From Prochlorococcus sp. AG-315-C08 (GTDB lineage: Bacteria; Cyanobacteriota; Cyanobacteriia; PCC-6307; Cyanobiaceae), in NCBI GenBank assembly GCA_003284185.1, contig QBWB01000002.1, positions 1 through 53,366 on the forward strand: DNA of 53,366 bases. Direction: 5' to 3'. Numbering within the stretch: the first letter of the stretch is position 1; the number at the start of each line of letters is the position of its first letter. This document shows positions 32,476 to 46,818 of the stretch, piece by piece. Position numbers and translations under genes: made by a program. The notes beneath the pieces were generated by a model. That model was not told where the DNA came from and searched no databases. It worked only from the letters and a program-made list of their open reading frames with translations.

Positions 32476-33477
32476 CTAACTATAACTATTAGAAACTAAG
32501 TTACAAACTCTTCTATATTGATCAATAGAAACAATAGTATCTGAATTTATATGGGATAGAGACTCTTGAGGAATACAAGTTAAAATCATACGAATAAAAT
32601 TAGTAAGTTTATGACCTCTCAATGCTGAACCTTTCTTCATAAGCATTTCATTTTCTTGTTGTTTTTTCCAATTAATTGTATTTTCAATATTTGTAGCCTT
32701 TAAATGCCAGGTTTTGCATAACATTTGCCAGATATCTGAATATTCTCTAAGCCTATTTTGCACTACTTCACGATATTCAGATTCAAACTGAGTTAAAGTA
32801 GGTTTATAAATGTTATTTAGTTTTGATCTAGACTGAAGTGGTTCACACCCAACAAACCACCCTTCAAGAATTAACACTTTAGGACGGGATTCAATCCATC
32901 CAGATCTATCGCCTAAACCATCCCTTAATGACTTATCAAAAGTTGGGCATTTGATCTTTCCACTTCTATTATAAGAGTCTAATGTATTTTTTAATAACTC
33001 AATAGAATGACTTCCAGGGATACCTCTAGGAACATTCCAAGGATTACCTTTCATAGCTATATCCATTTCTAAACCTGGCAAATAAAAGTCATCCAATGAT
33101 ATAACTTTAATTTCTAGATTTAAACTACTTGCAAGATTATTAATCCACTCACCTAATGTTGATTTACCACTTCCGGGGAGTCCAGACAAACCAATTATTA
33201 TTGGTTTACTAAATGAAGAAACATACCTTTCTAATAAGGAAAAAAAAGGAAAACATAAACCCCATTTCCAATCTAAGTCTATATCTTTTCTGAAGAGTTT
33301 TTCACAAATTGATTCTCTCTTTAAATCTAGCCATTCTTCAAAAAAGGAATGTTGATTAAAAGAAAGATTCTTAAGAAATAATTCATATGAATTAAAGTTA
33401 AAAGTGAAGCTATCCTTTATATCAGAAGGAATGTCTGAATAGAAATTATTATTAAATTTTAACTGATTTTCTGGCAT
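32476..33477 (-). CDS. D-glycerate 3-kinase (plant-type GLYK-like)
   Basis: P-loop IIIGLSGLPGSGKSTLGEWI, VISLDDFYLPG, NPWNVPRGIPGSHSIELL, FDKSLRDGLGDRSGW, LILEGWFVGCEPL. Confidence 0.92.
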   Translation of the reverse strand: MPENQLKFNNNFYSDIPSDIKDSFTFNFNSYELFLKNLSFNQHSFFEEWLDLKRESICEKLFRKDIDLDWKWGLCFPFFSLLERYVSSFSKPIIIGLSGLPGSGKSTLGEWINNLASSLNLEIKVISLDDFYLPGLEMDIAMKGNPWNVPRGIPGSHSIELLKNTLDSYNRSGKIKCPTFDKSLRDGLGDRSGWIESRPKVLILEGWFVGCEPLQSRSKLNNIYKPTLTQFESEYREVVQNRLREYSDIWQMLCKTWHLKATNIENTINWKKQQENEMLMKKGSALRGHKLTNFIRMILTCIPQESLSHINSDTIVSIDQYRRVCNLVSNSYS

Positions 33478-34293
33478 TTATATATCCACATTATTTAAAA
33501 TAATACTCTTTACACTATCAGCCCATCCAACAGCATGGGGTGCATTTGCTAATATGAATTCTCCTCTATTTATCCCATCTGTCAAATATTTGTTAGGACC
33601 ATTTCTGCCTGGTATCACAATTGATATGTCGGCATACTCGAGTAATGGTAAATCGTTCTGTGAATCACCTAAAGCAATTATTCTTACATTTGGTTTCTGT
33701 AAATACTCCTTTAATTTATTAACAGCTTTACCTTTATGACTATTCACACAAAGTAAATGGCTCATTCTATTACCTTTGAAAATATGAACATTATACTTAT
33801 TGCAATAAAACATTATTTTTTCATAAATATTTTCAGGTGGATTTAAAAATGGAACACTCCAATGCCTATCTAAAGCTCTGCTTATTTCATACCCAGCCAG
33901 ACCAGTAAGATTGTGGATTTCATTAGTTTTTAAGTCATTTAGTGGCGTTAGATTAAAAGAAACATCATTAGATAAAGAACTTAATACTTGCCTAAGTTGT
34001 TTATAACTTCTTCCAAGTATTAACTCCCATTCATCTATTTGATTTGCATGAGAACCGTAAATAGCGGATCCATTCTCAACAATAAAGGGGTCTAATAACT
34101 TATTCTCATTTCTAAAATATCTCACCTCAGATGCTGTTTTACTTGTGCATGGAATAACTGGAATAGATAATTTAGCTAACCATTTCAATGTTTCTTTAGC
34201 AGGAGAAATATCGTAGTTCTCATCCATTAATGTTCCATCCAAATCAGTAACAATCCAGAAATTTGAATTATTAGACATAAATAAATCAATCAA
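33478..34293 (-). CDS. gpgP: HAD-superfamily mannosyl/glucosyl-3-phosphoglycerate phosphatase
   Basis: WIVTDLDGTLMDENYD, IPVIPCTSKTASEVRYF, IVENGSAIY, ALGDSQNDLPLLEYADISIVIP. Confidence 0.88.
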   Translation of the reverse strand: MIDLFMSNNSNFWIVTDLDGTLMDENYDISPAKETLKWLAKLSIPVIPCTSKTASEVRYFRNENKLLDPFIVENGSAIYGSHANQIDEWELILGRSYKQLRQVLSSLSNDVSFNLTPLNDLKTNEIHNLTGLAGYEISRALDRHWSVPFLNPPENIYEKIMFYCNKYNVHIFKGNRMSHLLCVNSHKGKAVNKLKEYLQKPNVRIIALGDSQNDLPLLEYADISIVIPGRNGPNKYLTDGINRGEFILANAPHAVGWADSVKSIILNNVDI

Positions 34294-36065
34294 TCAATCA
34301 ATGTAAGCCATACTACTTGATAAGGTTTTAGTATAAAATTAATGGATTTATAAATAGTTCCAGTCAAATTGTCTAAAAATTGGCAATTTCTATTCATAGA
34401 ATCTATATCTAGTTCATCAAATAGTGGAATTTTTAAATCTTTATCAGTCATATTATACATTGCATAGACTTTTTCTAAATCTAAACCTCTTTGGATAATT
34501 ATATGATCCTTTATTTTTGTAGATAAACATTTCATTGGTGATTCTGGATGAAAGGCCATAAGTTTTGATCTAACTTTAATAGCGTGATTAAGATATGAAA
34601 TATTTTTACTAGCAGAGGACTCAAAGTTTTTAAGAATCTCAGCTAATCTATTTGCTTCAAATTTCTCTCGATTCAAATCCCTTCTTTGACCTGTTCTACT
34701 AAATGTTTCTATATCATTTGATGAAGCTAATATTGCCGGTAAATAAAATGCTGGAATACCTTTTAATGATAAAATAAAGATTTGACTAAGATAAAAGCGA
34801 TCAAACTGTAAACTTGGTGAACAATCCTTAATATTAGACATAGCACTCCACCAACTTATATTCAATTCATAAGGTTGATCTTTTCCGTTAGTCATTTTTC
34901 TATGACTAATTAAGCCTCCTCTTTTTTCAGATTCGACAAGAAGATTATGGATTCTTGTGTTATCCATAATGCCCTCTAATGCGCGTAATCCAATACCATC
35001 GTGAGATGAAGTGAAGTTCAATAGAGAAGTATTCTCTGGTAGTTCTGTCCAATTACTTAGCCAATCATTTAGTAAATCTGCTTGGCTGGTATATATAGAT
35101 TCTAAAAGGAGAGGAGGAAGAGTAAAATTATAAGCAATATTTGCCTCATCTCCCTCAACTAAATATGAAAGATTTTCTTTCTCTGGTACATTAGTCTCTG
35201 TAATTAATACTCCAGAAGACTTAATCAACTTAAGGCATCTATTTAAAACTCTTACAATTTTATGTACTTCATCCATATGTAAACATGTTGTATTGGCTTC
35301 TTTCCAAATAAAGGCTATTGCGTCAAGTCTTATCCAAAATGCACCGCATTCAACATATCTAACTAATAGCCTTAAATATTCTAGTAAAATATTTGGATTT
35401 CTCCAATTGACGTCAATTTGATCAGGGCCAAATGTTGTCCAAACATCCTTAATTCCATCTTTTGTTTTAATGCTTGTAAAAAGAGATGAACTTCTTGGTC
35501 TAATAACATTCTTCCATATATTAGATTGATTAGAAGAAACAATATAAGAAGAACCTGGTTGAATACAATTAATAAATTGCTGGACCCATAAGTGAGAGGA
35601 TGAGACATGATTCAATACTAAATCAGCCATTATTATATGTTTAACAGATAAACCTTTTAAATCATCCCAAGTACCAAATATTTCATCTATCTTTTCATGA
35701 TCAGAAACAGCAAAACCCCCATCACTTGTTGAAGGTAAAAAAGGTAAAATATGAACAATAGAAGAGAGATCTCCTAATTTTTTATCAAGAAATTCTTTAA
35801 GTGTTTTTAGAGTACTTTCTCCTTTCCTATAAATTGTGTCTGGATAAGTGATCAAAACCACACTAGAGGAATCCCAACTCGAATCAAAATCTGCATCATT
35901 AGTGTTGGCATTAACAAGATACGGATCCAAAATCTGTAATAATTGAGACCACATTAAAGTGATTTCTTCTTCAGAATGCTTGGGATAAATTCCCCTAAGC
36001 AACTGTCTTAGACTTTCTAATTCACAATTCAACTCTGACACGCTGAATAAGGAAACTATCTTCAC
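34290..36065 (-). CDS. GH13 sucrose phosphorylase-like enzyme; probable glucosylglycerate phosphorylase
   Basis: IVHILPFLPSTSDGGFAVSDHEKID, IIMADLVLNHVSSSHLWVQQF, FWIRLDAIAFIWKE, LITETNVPEKEN; 4-bp overlap with the phosphatase gene. Confidence 0.87.
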   Translation of the reverse strand: MKIVSLFSVSELNCELESLRQLLRGIYPKHSEEEITLMWSQLLQILDPYLVNANTNDADFDSSWDSSSVVLITYPDTIYRKGESTLKTLKEFLDKKLGDLSSIVHILPFLPSTSDGGFAVSDHEKIDEIFGTWDDLKGLSVKHIIMADLVLNHVSSSHLWVQQFINCIQPGSSYIVSSNQSNIWKNVIRPRSSSLFTSIKTKDGIKDVWTTFGPDQIDVNWRNPNILLEYLRLLVRYVECGAFWIRLDAIAFIWKEANTTCLHMDEVHKIVRVLNRCLKLIKSSGVLITETNVPEKENLSYLVEGDEANIAYNFTLPPLLLESIYTSQADLLNDWLSNWTELPENTSLLNFTSSHDGIGLRALEGIMDNTRIHNLLVESEKRGGLISHRKMTNGKDQPYELNISWWSAMSNIKDCSPSLQFDRFYLSQIFILSLKGIPAFYLPAILASSNDIETFSRTGQRRDLNREKFEANRLAEILKNFESSASKNISYLNHAIKVRSKLMAFHPESPMKCLSTKIKDHIIIQRGLDLEKVYAMYNMTDKDLKIPLFDELDIDSMNRNCQFLDNLTGTIYKSINFILKPYQVVWLTLID

Positions 36066-36111
36066 TACATCATCGTAGCCTCGACCTTAATTCTGTTGCA
36101 CTTATTACCGA

Positions 36112-37302
36112 ATGGACTTTCAGCAGGGTTTAATTACTACTATCCATGAATATGGGCTTGCAAAAGATCCATTATCTCAATTAAATCAAGACTTACAAAA
36201 AAGACCAACAGCAATATTAATTCCATGTCTATTTGATGAATTCAGTAGGCCTGCTCTTCAATTAATCAAAGCAACATTAAAGAAATTAAAAAACCTTAAT
36301 CAATTAGTTATAGCCTTAGCTGCAGACAATAAAAACCAGGTTTCTAAAGCTAAAGATTTTTTCGGTGAAATGCCATTTCCTGTACATGTGCAATGGACAA
36401 ATAGCCCTTTGGTTATTGAATTGCTTAAAAATCAAGAAAAGAATGGGCTTGATCTTTTAGGAACACCTGGAAAAGGGTGGGCAGTATGGCAGGGAGTAGG
36501 TGTCGCCACAAAAAGGTCAGAAGTTGTAGCTCTTTTTGATGCAGATATCAGGACATTTAATTCATTTTATCCAGCAAGAATGCTTCATCCGTTATTAGAT
36601 AAATCAAATGGAATCTCATACGTGAAAGCTTTTTATAGTCGTTTATCACTAGAAAATAATGCCTTACAAGGCAGAGCTACGAGACTATTTGTAGGTCCAC
36701 TCTTAGCAAGTCTTGAGCAATTAGTAGGCAATGGAGCATTCATCCAATATCTCCAGTCGTTTAGGTATCCACTTGCAGGTGAATTTGCTTTTACTAGAGA
36801 CTTAGCAATGAACCTAAGAATCCCTTGTGATTGGGGATTGGAAATTGGACTACTTTCGGAAGTATATAAAAATGTAAGAATCTCAAGAATTGCGCAAGTC
36901 GATCTTGGCATCTTTGATCATAAACATAAAGAGATTGGTTCAAAACCCAATGAAGGACTTCAAAAGATGTGTGCTGAAATTCTATCTAGTGTCTTGAGGG
37001 GGGTAATGGAACATCAAGCACAAACGCTTACTAATTCACAATTGGCCAATCTCGAAGTCTTATATAGAAGAGTTGGGGAAGATAGAGTGAAGCAATTCAG
37101 CTTAGACTCTTCTGTTAATCAACTCCCATACAGCAGACATGAAGAAGAATTAGCTGTTCATACCTTTGGTAAACTACTCAGACCAGCAATAAATACATTT
37201 CTTGAATATCCTGTAAAACAACAACTACCAAGTTGGTCAAGGGTTTTAGATTGTGAGGGCAAACTTCAAGATGAATTAGAAAAAGCTGGATCTACTATTT
37301 AA
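36112..37302 (+). CDS. gpgS: glucosyl-3-phosphoglycerate synthase (GT81-like)
   Basis: TAILIPCLFDEFSRPALQLI, GTPGKGWAVWQGVGVATKRSEVVALFDADIRTFNSFYPARMLHPLL, CDWGLEIGLLSEVYKNV. Confidence 0.92.
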   Translation: MDFQQGLITTIHEYGLAKDPLSQLNQDLQKRPTAILIPCLFDEFSRPALQLIKATLKKLKNLNQLVIALAADNKNQVSKAKDFFGEMPFPVHVQWTNSPLVIELLKNQEKNGLDLLGTPGKGWAVWQGVGVATKRSEVVALFDADIRTFNSFYPARMLHPLLDKSNGISYVKAFYSRLSLENNALQGRATRLFVGPLLASLEQLVGNGAFIQYLQSFRYPLAGEFAFTRDLAMNLRIPCDWGLEIGLLSEVYKNVRISRIAQVDLGIFDHKHKEIGSKPNEGLQKMCAEILSSVLRGVMEHQAQTLTNSQLANLEVLYRRVGEDRVKQFSLDSSVNQLPYSRHEEELAVHTFGKLLRPAINTFLEYPVKQQLPSWSRVLDCEGKLQDELEKAGSTI

Positions 37303-37311
37303 ACTTTGCAA

Positions 37312-38091
37312 TTATTTATATAAAGAAAAAGCCTTGATAAACAAACTAATAGAAACAGATAGACAAACTAATTCAAATACAAATTTAATAAACTTAGTTT
37401 GCTTAATAATAGAAAGAGATGCTCCTAAATATCCCCCAATTAACGAACCAGTTATCAGGATCGGAAGGCAATTCCAAAAAATGTCACCATGTAATCCCAA
37501 AGAAAAAGCTCCAACACCATTCCAAAAGATACCAACAAATATTAATGTATAAGCTATAGAAGCTGAAAAAGATAAATTAAAAATTTTTATCATCCAAATA
37601 GTAACAAACAATCCTGTGCCAGACGATAGATATCCATTAAGAAAACCAATAAAGAAAAGACCTAAAGAAGCAACGATAATGTTAAATAAACTAACATTAT
37701 TTGGAGTATTTTTATTACCCAGTTGTTTATTGGTAAATGAATAAAAACTAATTAATAATGTTAGTAAGCCTAATAAAGCTGTAGAGAATCTAGTAGGAAT
37801 AATTAAAACTGTTTTAACACCTAATAAAACGCCTGGTATACCTGATAACAAGATAAGTAGGCCATAACGTAGATTTAAATTTCTATTGCAAAAATGTGGA
37901 ATGGATGCCCCTATTCCCAAGGCCACACTTGCGACTTTATGTGTAGCCAGGGCATTTGAAAAAGGTAATCCAAAAAATAGTAGTGCTGGAAGTTGAATTA
38001 AGCCAGCACCACCACCAGCCAATGCAGATAGAAAATTAGAGAATAAAGATATAAACCCAAGACCGATTTGAGAAAATATATCAAATGTCAT
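37312..38091 (-). CDS. TauE/SafE-family sulfite exporter-like membrane protein
   Basis: LAGGGAGLIQLPALLFFGLPFSNALATHKVASVALGIGA, GFLNGYLSSGTGLFVTIWMI. Confidence 0.9.
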   Translation of the reverse strand: MTFDIFSQIGLGFISLFSNFLSALAGGGAGLIQLPALLFFGLPFSNALATHKVASVALGIGASIPHFCNRNLNLRYGLLILLSGIPGVLLGVKTVLIIPTRFSTALLGLLTLLISFYSFTNKQLGNKNTPNNVSLFNIIVASLGLFFIGFLNGYLSSGTGLFVTIWMIKIFNLSFSASIAYTLIFVGIFWNGVGAFSLGLHGDIFWNCLPILITGSLIGGYLGASLSIIKQTKFIKFVFELVCLSVSISLFIKAFSLYK

Positions 38092-42635: not shown

Positions 42636-43466
42636 CTAACTAGAAGCAGAAGTATAGTGCTTAAGTGCATATATCCAAAACTGACGACTTAAAACAAAAA
42701 AGAAAGTAGACAAGGCTAAACCAAATAATATTATAAAGAATTTCAATTCACCTAAAACTGCCTCTGCTGGAAAAGTCGTTAAGAAAGCAACTGGTAGAAG
42801 CAATGTAAAAATAAACCTCAATATTACAGGGTATGCAGTTATCGGATACCTTCCTGCAGCCAACAATGCTCTTAGAACTTCAGTAGCATTCCAAGTTTTA
42901 ACAAACCAGATACTTGAAGCTGCTATTAAAAACCAAATAGAATAAAGTATAACAAAGCCGATAAATAAGGAGACAAAAAAAGCAAGAGTATTATAAATGG
43001 ATAAATTTATACCAGTTCTAATTGCAGACCAAAAAACAATACCTAAACCTAAAATTATTTCTGGAATTCCCGCAAAGGAAAACTTTTTGATAGATAACCA
43101 GAATTGACTATCAATAGGTTTAAGTAGAACATAATCAAGAGTACCTTCTCTTACATAATTTACAATTTCTGTTAAATTCGGACGTAAAAGTGTATTTGTT
43201 AAACCATCCAAAAATGTATAGACACCTTGAATAACTAAAGCTGCTTCCCAACTCCAGTCTCCCAATTGCCTACCATCAGAAAAGAATAGTGATAAAATAA
43301 ATATACTTCCTGAAAGAGTACCTAACATCGCTAATAATTCAATCAAAAAGTTCAATTGGTATTCAAGTTGTGCGGCAAAAGCAGTAGACCAAAATAATTT
43401 AATTGTTTTAAGATAACGCTTCATTATGCTCCCATTGCTGTATATCTTCTTACTCCAAGTTTCCAA
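42636..43466 (-). CDS. ABC-2 type transporter permease
   Basis: Six hydrophobic segments, YVREGTLDYVLLKPIDSQFWLSIKKF; clustered with a second permease and an ATPase. Confidence 0.88.
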   Translation of the reverse strand: METWSKKIYSNGSIMKRYLKTIKLFWSTAFAAQLEYQLNFLIELLAMLGTLSGSIFILSLFFSDGRQLGDWSWEAALVIQGVYTFLDGLTNTLLRPNLTEIVNYVREGTLDYVLLKPIDSQFWLSIKKFSFAGIPEIILGLGIVFWSAIRTGINLSIYNTLAFFVSLFIGFVILYSIWFLIAASSIWFVKTWNATEVLRALLAAGRYPITAYPVILRFIFTLLLPVAFLTTFPAEAVLGELKFFIILFGLALSTFFFVLSRQFWIYALKHYTSASS

Positions 43467-44221
43467 AGAGTATTAACACTAGGAAGAAGTATAGTTATCC
43501 ATAAGATTTGATAAAAGAATCCATTTAATAAATCAACAGGCATACCAGACAAAATTTTTGCTGGGAAATTAATTAAATATGGAAAAGGTGTAAAATTTGC
43601 AAACATTAGAACCTTTTCTGGGAAAGCAGATAAAGGAACTAATAAACCAGATAGAAACAAGTAAGGAACAAATATCAATCTTTCCAATGCACTAGATTTT
43701 TCCGTCCAGAAACAAAGAGAAGCGACTAAACTTTGAAGAAGAAAAGCTATAGAGAATGCCAAATGAGTAGCTAAATATGCTAAAAACAATTGGCTCAATG
43801 AAGGAATCCAAAAGGATGATGGATTGAATAAAAAAAAGAAAATAGTAATCACAATCGCAAATGGAAGACGAGTAGCCTGTTCAGCTAAATGTGCAGAAAC
43901 ATATCTCAATAGAGGATGAAGAGGTTGCAGTAAGTATGGTGATAATCGACCAGAAAGTGAGTCTTCCTCAAATGAAAAAACAACCCAAACAACTGAAAAC
44001 TGTCTAACTAAAAAAGCACTTAGGAAATACCTAGCTAAACCAATATCATTAAGACCGAAACTATTACCAACATCATTTTGACTCCAAAGAGAAAACATAA
44101 TAAAAGGCAAAACGCCTGAAAGAGCCCATAATGCAATTTCTACTCTGTATTCAAGCATGTAGGCATATTGAGTAGTAAATAAAGTCTTTATGACTTTAAA
44201 AGATAATCCAAAGAGTCTCAT
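43424..44221 (-). CDS. ABC-2 type transporter permease
   Basis: Multi-TM, SFEEDSLSGRLSPYLLQPLHPLLRYVSAHLAEQATRLPF; overlaps both neighbours. Confidence 0.88.
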   Translation of the reverse strand: MRLFGLSFKVIKTLFTTQYAYMLEYRVEIALWALSGVLPFIMFSLWSQNDVGNSFGLNDIGLARYFLSAFLVRQFSVVWVVFSFEEDSLSGRLSPYLLQPLHPLLRYVSAHLAEQATRLPFAIVITIFFFLFNPSSFWIPSLSQLFLAYLATHLAFSIAFLLQSLVASLCFWTEKSSALERLIFVPYLFLSGLLVPLSAFPEKVLMFANFTPFPYLINFPAKILSGMPVDLLNGFFYQILWITILLPSVNTLWKLGVRRYTAMGA

Positions 44222-45216
44222 CTAACTACTCCTTTTAAAAAAAGATCGCCTATTAACTTATCAATAGGTGGATCACTTATTTCTAAATCAATAACGGAAA
44301 AATCGGATAGTAGTTTACTTACAACCTGAGTTAATTTAGTTCTAGAAACTAATAAACATACAAAGCGGTCATTTAATTCCTGTATCTCACCGTAATTAAC
44401 AAATTGATCAGGGGAGTAGGATTTTTTAAGCTCTACTCTAACTTCTTTTGAAGGTGCTAATGAATTAGCAAGTGAATCTAAATCTCCATCATAAAATAAG
44501 CTTCCATTATGAATGCAAATAACTCTTGGACATAATGCAGTTATGTCAGCCATATAATGACTTGTAAGTATAATCGTAGCCCCAGTTCGTTTATTATATT
44601 CTGCCAAGAAACTTCGGACCCTAGCTTGTGCATTAACATCTAATCCAAGAGTAGGTTCATCAAGAAAAAGAACCGATGGATGATGTAATAACGCAGCGAG
44701 AAGTTCAGACTTCATCCTTTGTCCGAGTGATAGCTTTCTAACTGGGCGTGTAAGTTCTTCTCCGAGTTCAAGCATATCCGCCAATTCATTTATTCTCTTT
44801 CTTGTAACTTCATCCGACAAACCATAAACCGCAGCATTTACATATAAGGAATCCATAGGAGGCAAATCCCAAATCAACTGTTGTTTTTGCCCCATTACCA
44901 AAGTAATTTTCTTTAGAAATGCGGTTTGCCTTCTTTGAGGTAAAAAACCACCAACATCAACAAACCCATTAGAAGGATGAATAAGACCGCACATCATTTT
45001 TAATAATGTAGTTTTACCTGCCCCATTAGCACCAAGAAATCCAACTATTTCTCCTGCAAATATATTAAAACTGATGTCTGTGACAGCAGGTACATTATAA
45101 GTTCTACGATTAAAAAAATGACTCAAAGTCCCTCTAAAACCCGGCTGCTTATCTGCCACTCGGTAGAATTTACTTAAATGATCAACACGGATCAATTCCC
45201 TAGGATTATCTTGCAA
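44218..45216 (-). CDS. ABC transporter ATP-binding protein
   Basis: Walker A GFLGANGAGKTTLLKMMCGLIHP, signature LSLGQRMKSELLAALL, Walker B VLFLDEPTLGLD. Confidence 0.96.
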   Translation of the reverse strand: MQDNPRELIRVDHLSKFYRVADKQPGFRGTLSHFFNRRTYNVPAVTDISFNIFAGEIVGFLGANGAGKTTLLKMMCGLIHPSNGFVDVGGFLPQRRQTAFLKKITLVMGQKQQLIWDLPPMDSLYVNAAVYGLSDEVTRKRINELADMLELGEELTRPVRKLSLGQRMKSELLAALLHHPSVLFLDEPTLGLDVNAQARVRSFLAEYNKRTGATIILTSHYMADITALCPRVICIHNGSLFYDGDLDSLANSLAPSKEVRVELKKSYSPDQFVNYGEIQELNDRFVCLLVSRTKLTQVVSKLLSDFSVIDLEISDPPIDKLIGDLFLKGVVR

Positions 45217-45933: not shown

Positions 45934-46818
45934 CTAAAGATTGTTTTTATAAATATATCTATGTAATACTGAGATATCTAAGTCTGAATAACCTCTTTCC
46001 ATAAGCTCAGACTCCATTTCCTTGACTTTTGATGTTATAGGAAGATCAACATTAATAGATTTAGCTAAATCAATTGCTATGCATAAATCCTTATGATGTA
46101 ACCCTAATTTAAAACCTAATGGATGATCATTTTTCAATATTGAATTTGATCTATGTTCCAAAGGCCATGAATTAGCGGCTCCTAACTTTAATGAATTAAC
46201 TACAAGCTCCATCGGTAAATCAAGTAATTTTCCTAATGCAATCGATTCAGCGACAGCTGCATATGTTCCTGCTATTAGAATTTGATTTAATGCCTTAACT
46301 TTTTGACCATTACCGATGTTATCAAAATAGTTAATCGATTTACCAAGAACATTAAAAATATCCTCAAAAGAAGCGCAATCCTTTTTACTTGCACCAATAA
46401 ACAAAGAAAGATTACCTGTTTTAGCTCCTTCCGTACCACCTGAAACAGGACAATCAATGTAAAAAATCCTTTTTTTCTTTAATCTTTGATGTAAAGAGAT
46501 TGATTTAGCAGGACTTATTGTGGAAAAGTCAATCACAAAAGAATCAGCTTTAAGTTTTTTTGATAGTCCATTCTCTCCAAATAAAACCGACTCAACAGCA
46601 GCGTCATCAGTAACGCAGATCAAAAGTCCATCAAAGCCCATAACCGTTTCAGAGGGATTATAAGAATATCTGTTATTCTCATTATTAAAAGTTTTATCTC
46701 TATTATATAAATTCAAATCATACCCCCTATTAATCAACAGATCGGACATCGGCCTACCCAATGCCCCTAGTCCAATAAATGCAAGCTTTAATGTGGGTTT
46801 AATTCTATTCATGCTCAT
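45934..46818 (-). CDS. 3-hydroxyisobutyrate dehydrogenase-like NAD(P)-dependent oxidoreductase
   Basis: LAFIGLGALGRPMSDLLINRGYDLNLYNRD, FYIDCPVSGGTEGAKTGNLSLFIG, GNGQKVKALNQ. Confidence 0.94.
   Translation of the reverse strand: MSMNRIKPTLKLAFIGLGALGRPMSDLLINRGYDLNLYNRDKTFNNENNRYSYNPSETVMGFDGLLICVTDDAAVESVLFGENGLSKKLKADSFVIDFSTISPAKSISLHQRLKKKRIFYIDCPVSGGTEGAKTGNLSLFIGASKKDCASFEDIFNVLGKSINYFDNIGNGQKVKALNQILIAGTYAAVAESIALGKLLDLPMELVVNSLKLGAANSWPLEHRSNSILKNDHPLGFKLGLHHKDLCIAIDLAKSINVDLPITSKVKEMESELMERGYSDLDISVLHRYIYKNNL

What the first reader, a model, noticed from the sequence alone, without database searches (positions are those of the whole stretch)
32476..37302. Self-contained glucosylglycerate synthesis and recycling block
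Four genes that together would close a cycle: gpgS (glucosyl-3-phosphoglycerate synthase, +), and on the opposite strand a GH13 sucrose-phosphorylase-like enzyme, the HAD phosphatase (4-bp overlap) and a D-glycerate 3-kinase (stop and start abutting). Established roles of these families: 3-PGA plus NDP-glucose gives glucosyl-3-phosphoglycerate, then glucosylglycerate; a phosphorylase would give glucose-1-P plus glycerate, and the kinase returns glycerate to 3-PGA. The divergent arrangement with only 46 bp between the 36065 and 36112 starts suggests synthesis and mobilisation of a nitrogen-free compatible solute are reciprocally controlled. The same glycerate kinase could also serve photorespiration. 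Synthesis genes are known from marine picocyanobacteria; the complete block with the kinase is what deserves a look.
Basis: partly seen in the sequence, partly recalled or inferred. Interest (0 to 1): 0.6.

Follow-up and report, generated by a model that had tools for sequence, protein, structure and literature searches.

The report
Prochlorococcus glucosylglycerate synthesis and recycling locus
Four neighbouring genes let this marine cyanobacterium make the nitrogen-free protectant glucosylglycerate and break it down again; the locus is real and largely already described, and the modest new point is that its last enzyme is the cell's only glycerate kinase and outlives the rest of the pathway when that is lost.

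Summary
The GH13 protein carries the published signature of glucosylglycerate phosphorylase (TETN at the acid/base, loop-A Glu400) and matches E. coli YcjM far better than any sucrose phosphorylase, so the cycle reading holds. [quoted passage not shown] Corrections: the likely ggaP start is GTG 36041 (70 bp, not 46 bp, to gpgS); gpgP likely starts at ATG 34278 (11-bp gap, no 4-bp overlap); gpgP, a synthesis gene, sits on the mobilisation side, so the divergent layout does not cleanly separate making from breaking. New here: this class III kinase is the only glycerate kinase found in complete genomes of the genus; marine Synechococcus have gpgS-ggaP-gpgP together but the kinase elsewhere; several related lineages lost or pseudogenised the other genes but kept the kinase; high-light genomes keep the block but lack glycolate oxidase/dehydrogenase. 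The kinase therefore appears to serve two glycerate sources, photorespiration and glucosylglycerate, either of which can be lost.

The parts
36112..37302 (+). gpgS, glucosyl-3-phosphoglycerate synthase (396 aa)
   Evidence: NCBIfam GpgS_Meth 5e-119 over the full length, below its curated cut-off; PDB GpgS structures; DADIR/DADIK motif in 38 of 39 sequences, DGDIR in one
34290..36041 (-). ggaP, GH13_18 glucosylglycerate phosphorylase; longest ORF runs to 36065 but the conserved start is GTG 36041
   Evidence: TETN 289-292, Glu400, RLD 246-248, SHD 354-356 (longest-ORF numbering); E. coli YcjM 298 bits against best sucrose phosphorylase 152 bits; start revision
33478..34278 (-). gpgP, glucosyl-3-phosphoglycerate phosphatase (HAD-IIB, MPGP family); longest ORF runs to TTG 34293
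   Evidence: NF001217 405 bits above cut-off 373; DLDGTL and GDSQND motifs; start revision
32476..33477 (-). glyK, class III (plant/fungal-type) D-glycerate 3-kinase (333 aa)
   Evidence: PDB D-glycerate 3-kinases 7xpc and 6ckg at 5e-15 and 3e-14; Walker A GLPGSGKST; only glycerate kinase found in complete genomes of the genus
36042..36111 (.). probable divergent intergenic region between ggaP and gpgS, with a conserved stretch around TCATCGTAG...ATTCTGT
   Evidence: alignment of the genus and neighbouring genera
37312..38091 (-). TauE/SafE-family permease, tail to tail with gpgS; candidate for the adjacent transporter of the NATL2A paper, not a conserved part of the block
   Evidence: PF01925 5e-37; adjacent in the genus, but distant, inverted or missing at the locus in other block-bearing genera

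Best explanation
The locus is the glucosylglycerate cycle of Prochlorococcus. GpgS joins glucose from an NDP-glucose to 3-phosphoglycerate, GpgP removes the phosphate, and the solute accumulates. GGaP cleaves it with phosphate to glucose 1-phosphate and D-glycerate, and GlyK phosphorylates glycerate back to 3-phosphoglycerate, so the bond energy of the glucoside is partly kept and both halves return to central metabolism. GlyK is also the only glycerate kinase found in the cell, so it must serve any photorespiratory glycerate as well. Shown here: gene order, signature residues, conservation, the single kinase class, and loss patterns. Inferred: enzyme activities, flux and regulation.
For: GGaP signature (TETN, loop-A Glu; defined in PMC7178133) present in 40 of 40 family loci and in E. 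coli YcjM, annotated GGaP. YcjM 298 bits against best sucrose phosphorylase 152 bits. GpgS, GpgP and GlyK family matches. Conserved order in 19 of 19 genus loci and in other Prochlorococcus-like genera at 41-77% protein identity. No class I or class II glycerate kinase in the genus, one class III. In NATL2A, synthesis transcripts fall and recycling transcripts rise together in dark-tolerant cells (PMC11631117).
Against: None of the papers read reports an assay of these enzymes from this genus. Another study names the picocyanobacterial gene gmgG, a glucosyl(mannosyl)glycerate glucosidase (PMC9361551). GpgS scores below its model's curated cut-off, and the GpgP model is named for mannosyl-3-phosphoglycerate.
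Confidence: 0.88

Rival explanations
1. The GH13 protein is a sucrose phosphorylase or other GH13_18 enzyme, and the kinase is unrelated photorespiratory baggage.
For: Best database names are sucrose phosphorylase; Prochlorococcus NATL2A also holds sucrose (PMC11631117).
Against: NCBIfam sucrose_gtfA 169 bits, far below its cut-off of 334; GGaP-specific TETN and loop-A Glu invariant; YcjM much closer; constant linkage with gpgS and gpgP, also in Synechococcus.
Confidence: 0.04
2. The GH13 protein hydrolyses glucosylglycerate (glucosidase, as in the gmgG naming), giving free glucose instead of glucose 1-phosphate.
For: The gmgG name used for picocyanobacteria (PMC9361551; that it denotes this gene is inferred); GH13 contains hydrolases.
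Against: Closest characterised relative is the phosphorylase YcjM, with the phosphorylase-clade signature residues.
Confidence: 0.06
3. The kinase serves photorespiration only and its place beside ggaP is incidental.
For: Kept in lineages that lost ggaP and unlinked in marine Synechococcus; class III kinases are photorespiratory in plants (PMC2063504).
Against: High-light genomes keep the kinase in the block although 60 of 60 lack a full-length GlcD match and two of two tested lack a GOX-like protein; PMC9723591 reports no GOX/LOX in high-light strains and no 2PG phosphatase in MIT9312. Junction with gpgP is tight across the genus.
Confidence: 0.07

Closest known systems
Glucosylglycerate metabolism operon of Prochlorococcus NATL2A (PMC11631117)
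   Same: Same pathway, genes co-located, adjacent transporter gene, recycling to glucose 1-phosphate and 3-phosphoglycerate; opposite expression of synthesis and recycling reported.
   Different: The window is from a different species of the same genus (ggaP about 69% identical to the genome whose length, from memory, is NATL2A's); start sites revised here; adjacency of the transporter is not conserved across genera.
Glucosylglycerate phosphorylase gene clusters (GH13_18, EC 2.4.1.352; Franceus 2017 as reviewed in PMC7178133)
   Same: GGaP beside glycerate kinase, GpgS or GpgP; TETN and loop-A Glu signature.
   [quoted passage not shown] coli; none from a cyanobacterium in the papers read. E. 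coli ycjM lies in a transport/dehydrogenase cluster instead.
gpgS/gpgP of marine picocyanobacteria (SYNW2436/SYNW2434 in WH8102, PMC2874817)
   Same: gpgS and gpgP flank the middle gene (SYNW2435); the same three-gene order is seen here in Synechococcus-like genomes.
   Different: In the Synechococcus-like genomes examined the glycerate kinase is elsewhere in the genome; in Prochlorococcus it joins the block.

Membership tests
Glucosylglycerate phosphorylase (GGaP, GH13_18) | (T/S)ETN motif at the acid/base residue | tested here: met
   TETN at 289-292 in the window and in 40 of 40 family loci; shared with YcjM
Glucosylglycerate phosphorylase (GGaP, GH13_18) | Glu instead of Gln in loop A | tested here: met
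   Glu400 in PYE(L/I/V)N in 40 of 40; sucrose phosphorylase 7qqj has YQIN there
Glucosylglycerate phosphorylase (GGaP, GH13_18) | phosphate-dependent cleavage of glucosylglycerate, not sucrose | not testable with these tools
   needs an enzyme assay
Sucrose phosphorylase | N(L/V)D(I/L/V)YQ loop-A motif and sucrose_gtfA cut-off | tested here: not met
   loop A reads QPYELN; 169 bits against cut-off 334.4
Glucosyl-3-phosphoglycerate synthase (GpgS) | GpgS profile match with DxD-type donor motif | tested here: inconclusive
   E 5e-119 over the full length and DADIR present, but 398 bits is below the model's cut-off of 700; by its name that model is built on methanogen-type sequences
GpgP (HAD-IIB, MPGP family) | MPGP-family profile above cut-off with HAD motifs | tested here: met
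   NF001217 405 against 373 bits; DLDGTL and GDSQND; glucosyl versus mannosyl specificity not testable here
Class III D-glycerate 3-kinase (GLYK) | P-loop kinase related to plant/fungal GLYK, unrelated to classes I and II | tested here: met
   7xpc and 6ckg hits; P-loop present; no PF02595, PF05161 or PF13660 in the genus where searched

The most novel reading that the evidence does not exclude
In the Prochlorococcus lineage the cell's only glycerate kinase became physically tied to the glucosylglycerate locus. It now has two possible glycerate sources, and different lineages have dropped one or the other: high-light clades lack glycolate oxidation but keep the glucosylglycerate cycle, while several other lineages have eroded the glucosylglycerate genes (remnants still visible) and keep the kinase.
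Probability: 0.55. Interest if true: 0.42.

Novelty: already known. Interest (0 to 1): 0.28.

Why it matters
Prochlorococcus is a dominant ocean phototroph and glucosylglycerate is one of its major solutes. A phosphorolytic cycle would make the solute a carbon and energy store as well as an osmolyte. The single shared kinase gives a simple test of how photorespiration and solute recycling are linked, and high-light strains offer a natural case where only solute recycling should feed it.

Tried and rejected
Sucrose phosphorylase identity: rejected on signature residues and scores. The recurring TAA inside relatives' ggaP looked like a broken gene but lies at codon 7, upstream of the real start. 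A second glycerate kinase class in the genome: not found. The TauE permease as an integral part of the block: rejected as a conserved feature because its place varies between genera. Naming the glyK-only lineages with genome contigs: failed, one irrelevant hit. The 2017 GGaP paper is not held; its content is taken from reviews. One family scan failed on a coordinate error and was rerun.

Full report
Observation. The four genes are present as described. gpgS lies on the + strand at 36112-37302; the GH13 gene, the HAD phosphatase and the glycerate kinase lie on the - strand at 34290-36065, 33478-34293 and 32476-33477. The genus is conserved across the whole neighbourhood: in 19 wide loci from 19 genomes the order msrA, uppP, two small ORFs, glyK, gpgP, ggaP, gpgS, a TauE permease is the same. 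The window's genome is an incomplete assembly (961,761 bases in 77 contigs, 52% complete). One relative has exactly the length I remember for Prochlorococcus NATL2A (1,842,899 bases); that identification, and high-light or low-light labels drawn from genome lengths, are from memory.

Gene boundaries. The longest ORFs mislead at two starts. Thirteen of 19 genus relatives have a stop at codon 7 of the ggaP frame, whereas the GTG at codon 9 is present in all 19 and in the high-light genomes checked. The likely start is 36041 and the divergent gap is 70 bp. For gpgP, 14 of 19 relatives have a stop codon where the window has TTG, whereas the ATG at 34278 is in 18 of 19. The 4-bp overlap is probably an 11-bp gap. 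glyK starts directly after the gpgP stop, and in many relatives the two overlap by 4 bp. The intergenic region contains a conserved stretch, but I could not assign promoters.

Identity of the enzymes. The GH13 protein scores 169 bits on the sucrose phosphorylase equivalog, with a cut-off of 334. Its best solved relatives are sucrose and glucosylglycerol phosphorylases at about 150 bits. E. coli YcjM, annotated as glucosylglycerate phosphorylase, gives 298 bits. The review PMC7178133 defines GGaP by (T/S)ETN at strand beta-5 and a Glu in loop A; both are present and invariant in 40 of 40 family sequences and in YcjM. Catalytic RLD and SHD/CHD positions are kept. GpgS matches the synthase family over its length but below the curated cut-off. 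GpgP passes an MPGP-family model. The kinase matches solved D-glycerate 3-kinases, the class III type of PMC2063504.

The kinase is the only one found. PF02595 (class I) and PF13660 (class II) were found in none of the 37 genus genomes searched including the window's own, and PF05161 was absent from the own genome, while class III was found once in most genus genomes, including every complete one. In the wider family, class III was found in 239 of 251 genomes at least 90% complete. The kinase therefore cannot be reserved for glucosylglycerate if the cell also makes photorespiratory glycerate.

Two glycerate sources. In three Synechococcus-like loci, gpgS-ggaP-gpgP are together but glyK is absent and lies far away or on another contig. 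In Prochlorococcus-like genera the kinase follows gpgP. At 17 glyK loci chosen because their genomes lack a good ggaP match, the block is missing or broken. Remnants are visible: L075 has a truncated gpgS with a stop and a 23-residue tail of gpgP; L078 has half of gpgP; L080 has the tails of gpgP and gpgS meeting. An 18th locus, L087, has gpgS and gpgP with a ggaP remnant containing three stops. On a glyK tree the loss pattern needs about 5-6 changes, and well-supported branches force at least 2; most inner branches are weak. Conversely, all 60 high-light-type genomes lack a full-length GlcD match, and the two tested lack a GOX-like protein, yet the two examined keep the block. PMC9723591 independently reports no GOX/LOX in high-light strains, an incomplete route in MIT9312, and GOX/LOX candidates in NATL2A and MIT9211, matching. 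The simplest reading is that GlyK handles glycerate from either route.

Regulation. Because gpgP sits with ggaP and glyK, the divergent promoter separates only gpgS from the rest. Even so, NATL2A data show synthesis of glucosyl-3-phosphoglycerate going down while recycling genes go up in dark-tolerant cells (PMC11631117), which supports opposite control of gpgS and the recycling genes. The transporter in that paper is probably the TauE-family gene next to gpgS; its position is not conserved in other block-bearing genera, so a role in glucosylglycerate uptake is weakly supported by context.

Novelty. The block, its logic and its presence in Prochlorococcus are published. Limits: no biochemical test; gpgS and gpgP were not searched genome-wide in glyK-only genomes; several of those genomes are drafts; organism names for them are unknown.

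Noticed in passing
L075, L078, L080, L087 (coordinates): Eroding glucosylglycerate genes beside an intact glycerate kinase in related lineages; in L087 only the phosphorylase is clearly broken, which would leave synthesis without mobilisation.
   Followed up: partly
window 45934-46818 (-): 3-hydroxyisobutyrate dehydrogenase / tartronate semialdehyde reductase-like gene about 8 kb from the block; below the tartronate semialdehyde reductase cut-off. Its activity could matter for glycerate formation.
   Followed up: partly
window 37312-38091 (-): TauE/SafE permease next to gpgS, conserved in the genus but moved or missing at the locus in other genera; likely the transporter named in the NATL2A dark-survival paper.
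   Followed up: partly
gpgP-gpgS adjacency in genus loci L031-L049, against Table 4 of PMC9606707: That paper lists gpgP and gpgS of NATL1A as NATL1_05721 and NATL1_09131, far apart in numbering, whereas in every genus locus seen here the two genes lie in one block; the expression data may refer to other genes.
   Followed up: no
L062 (G086): Locus with ggaP, gpgP and glyK but no gpgS between ggaP and the TauE gene; draft genome, so loss or assembly gap is open.
   Followed up: no
window 42636-45216 (-): Three-gene ABC-2 type exporter (ATPase and two membrane proteins).
   Followed up: no
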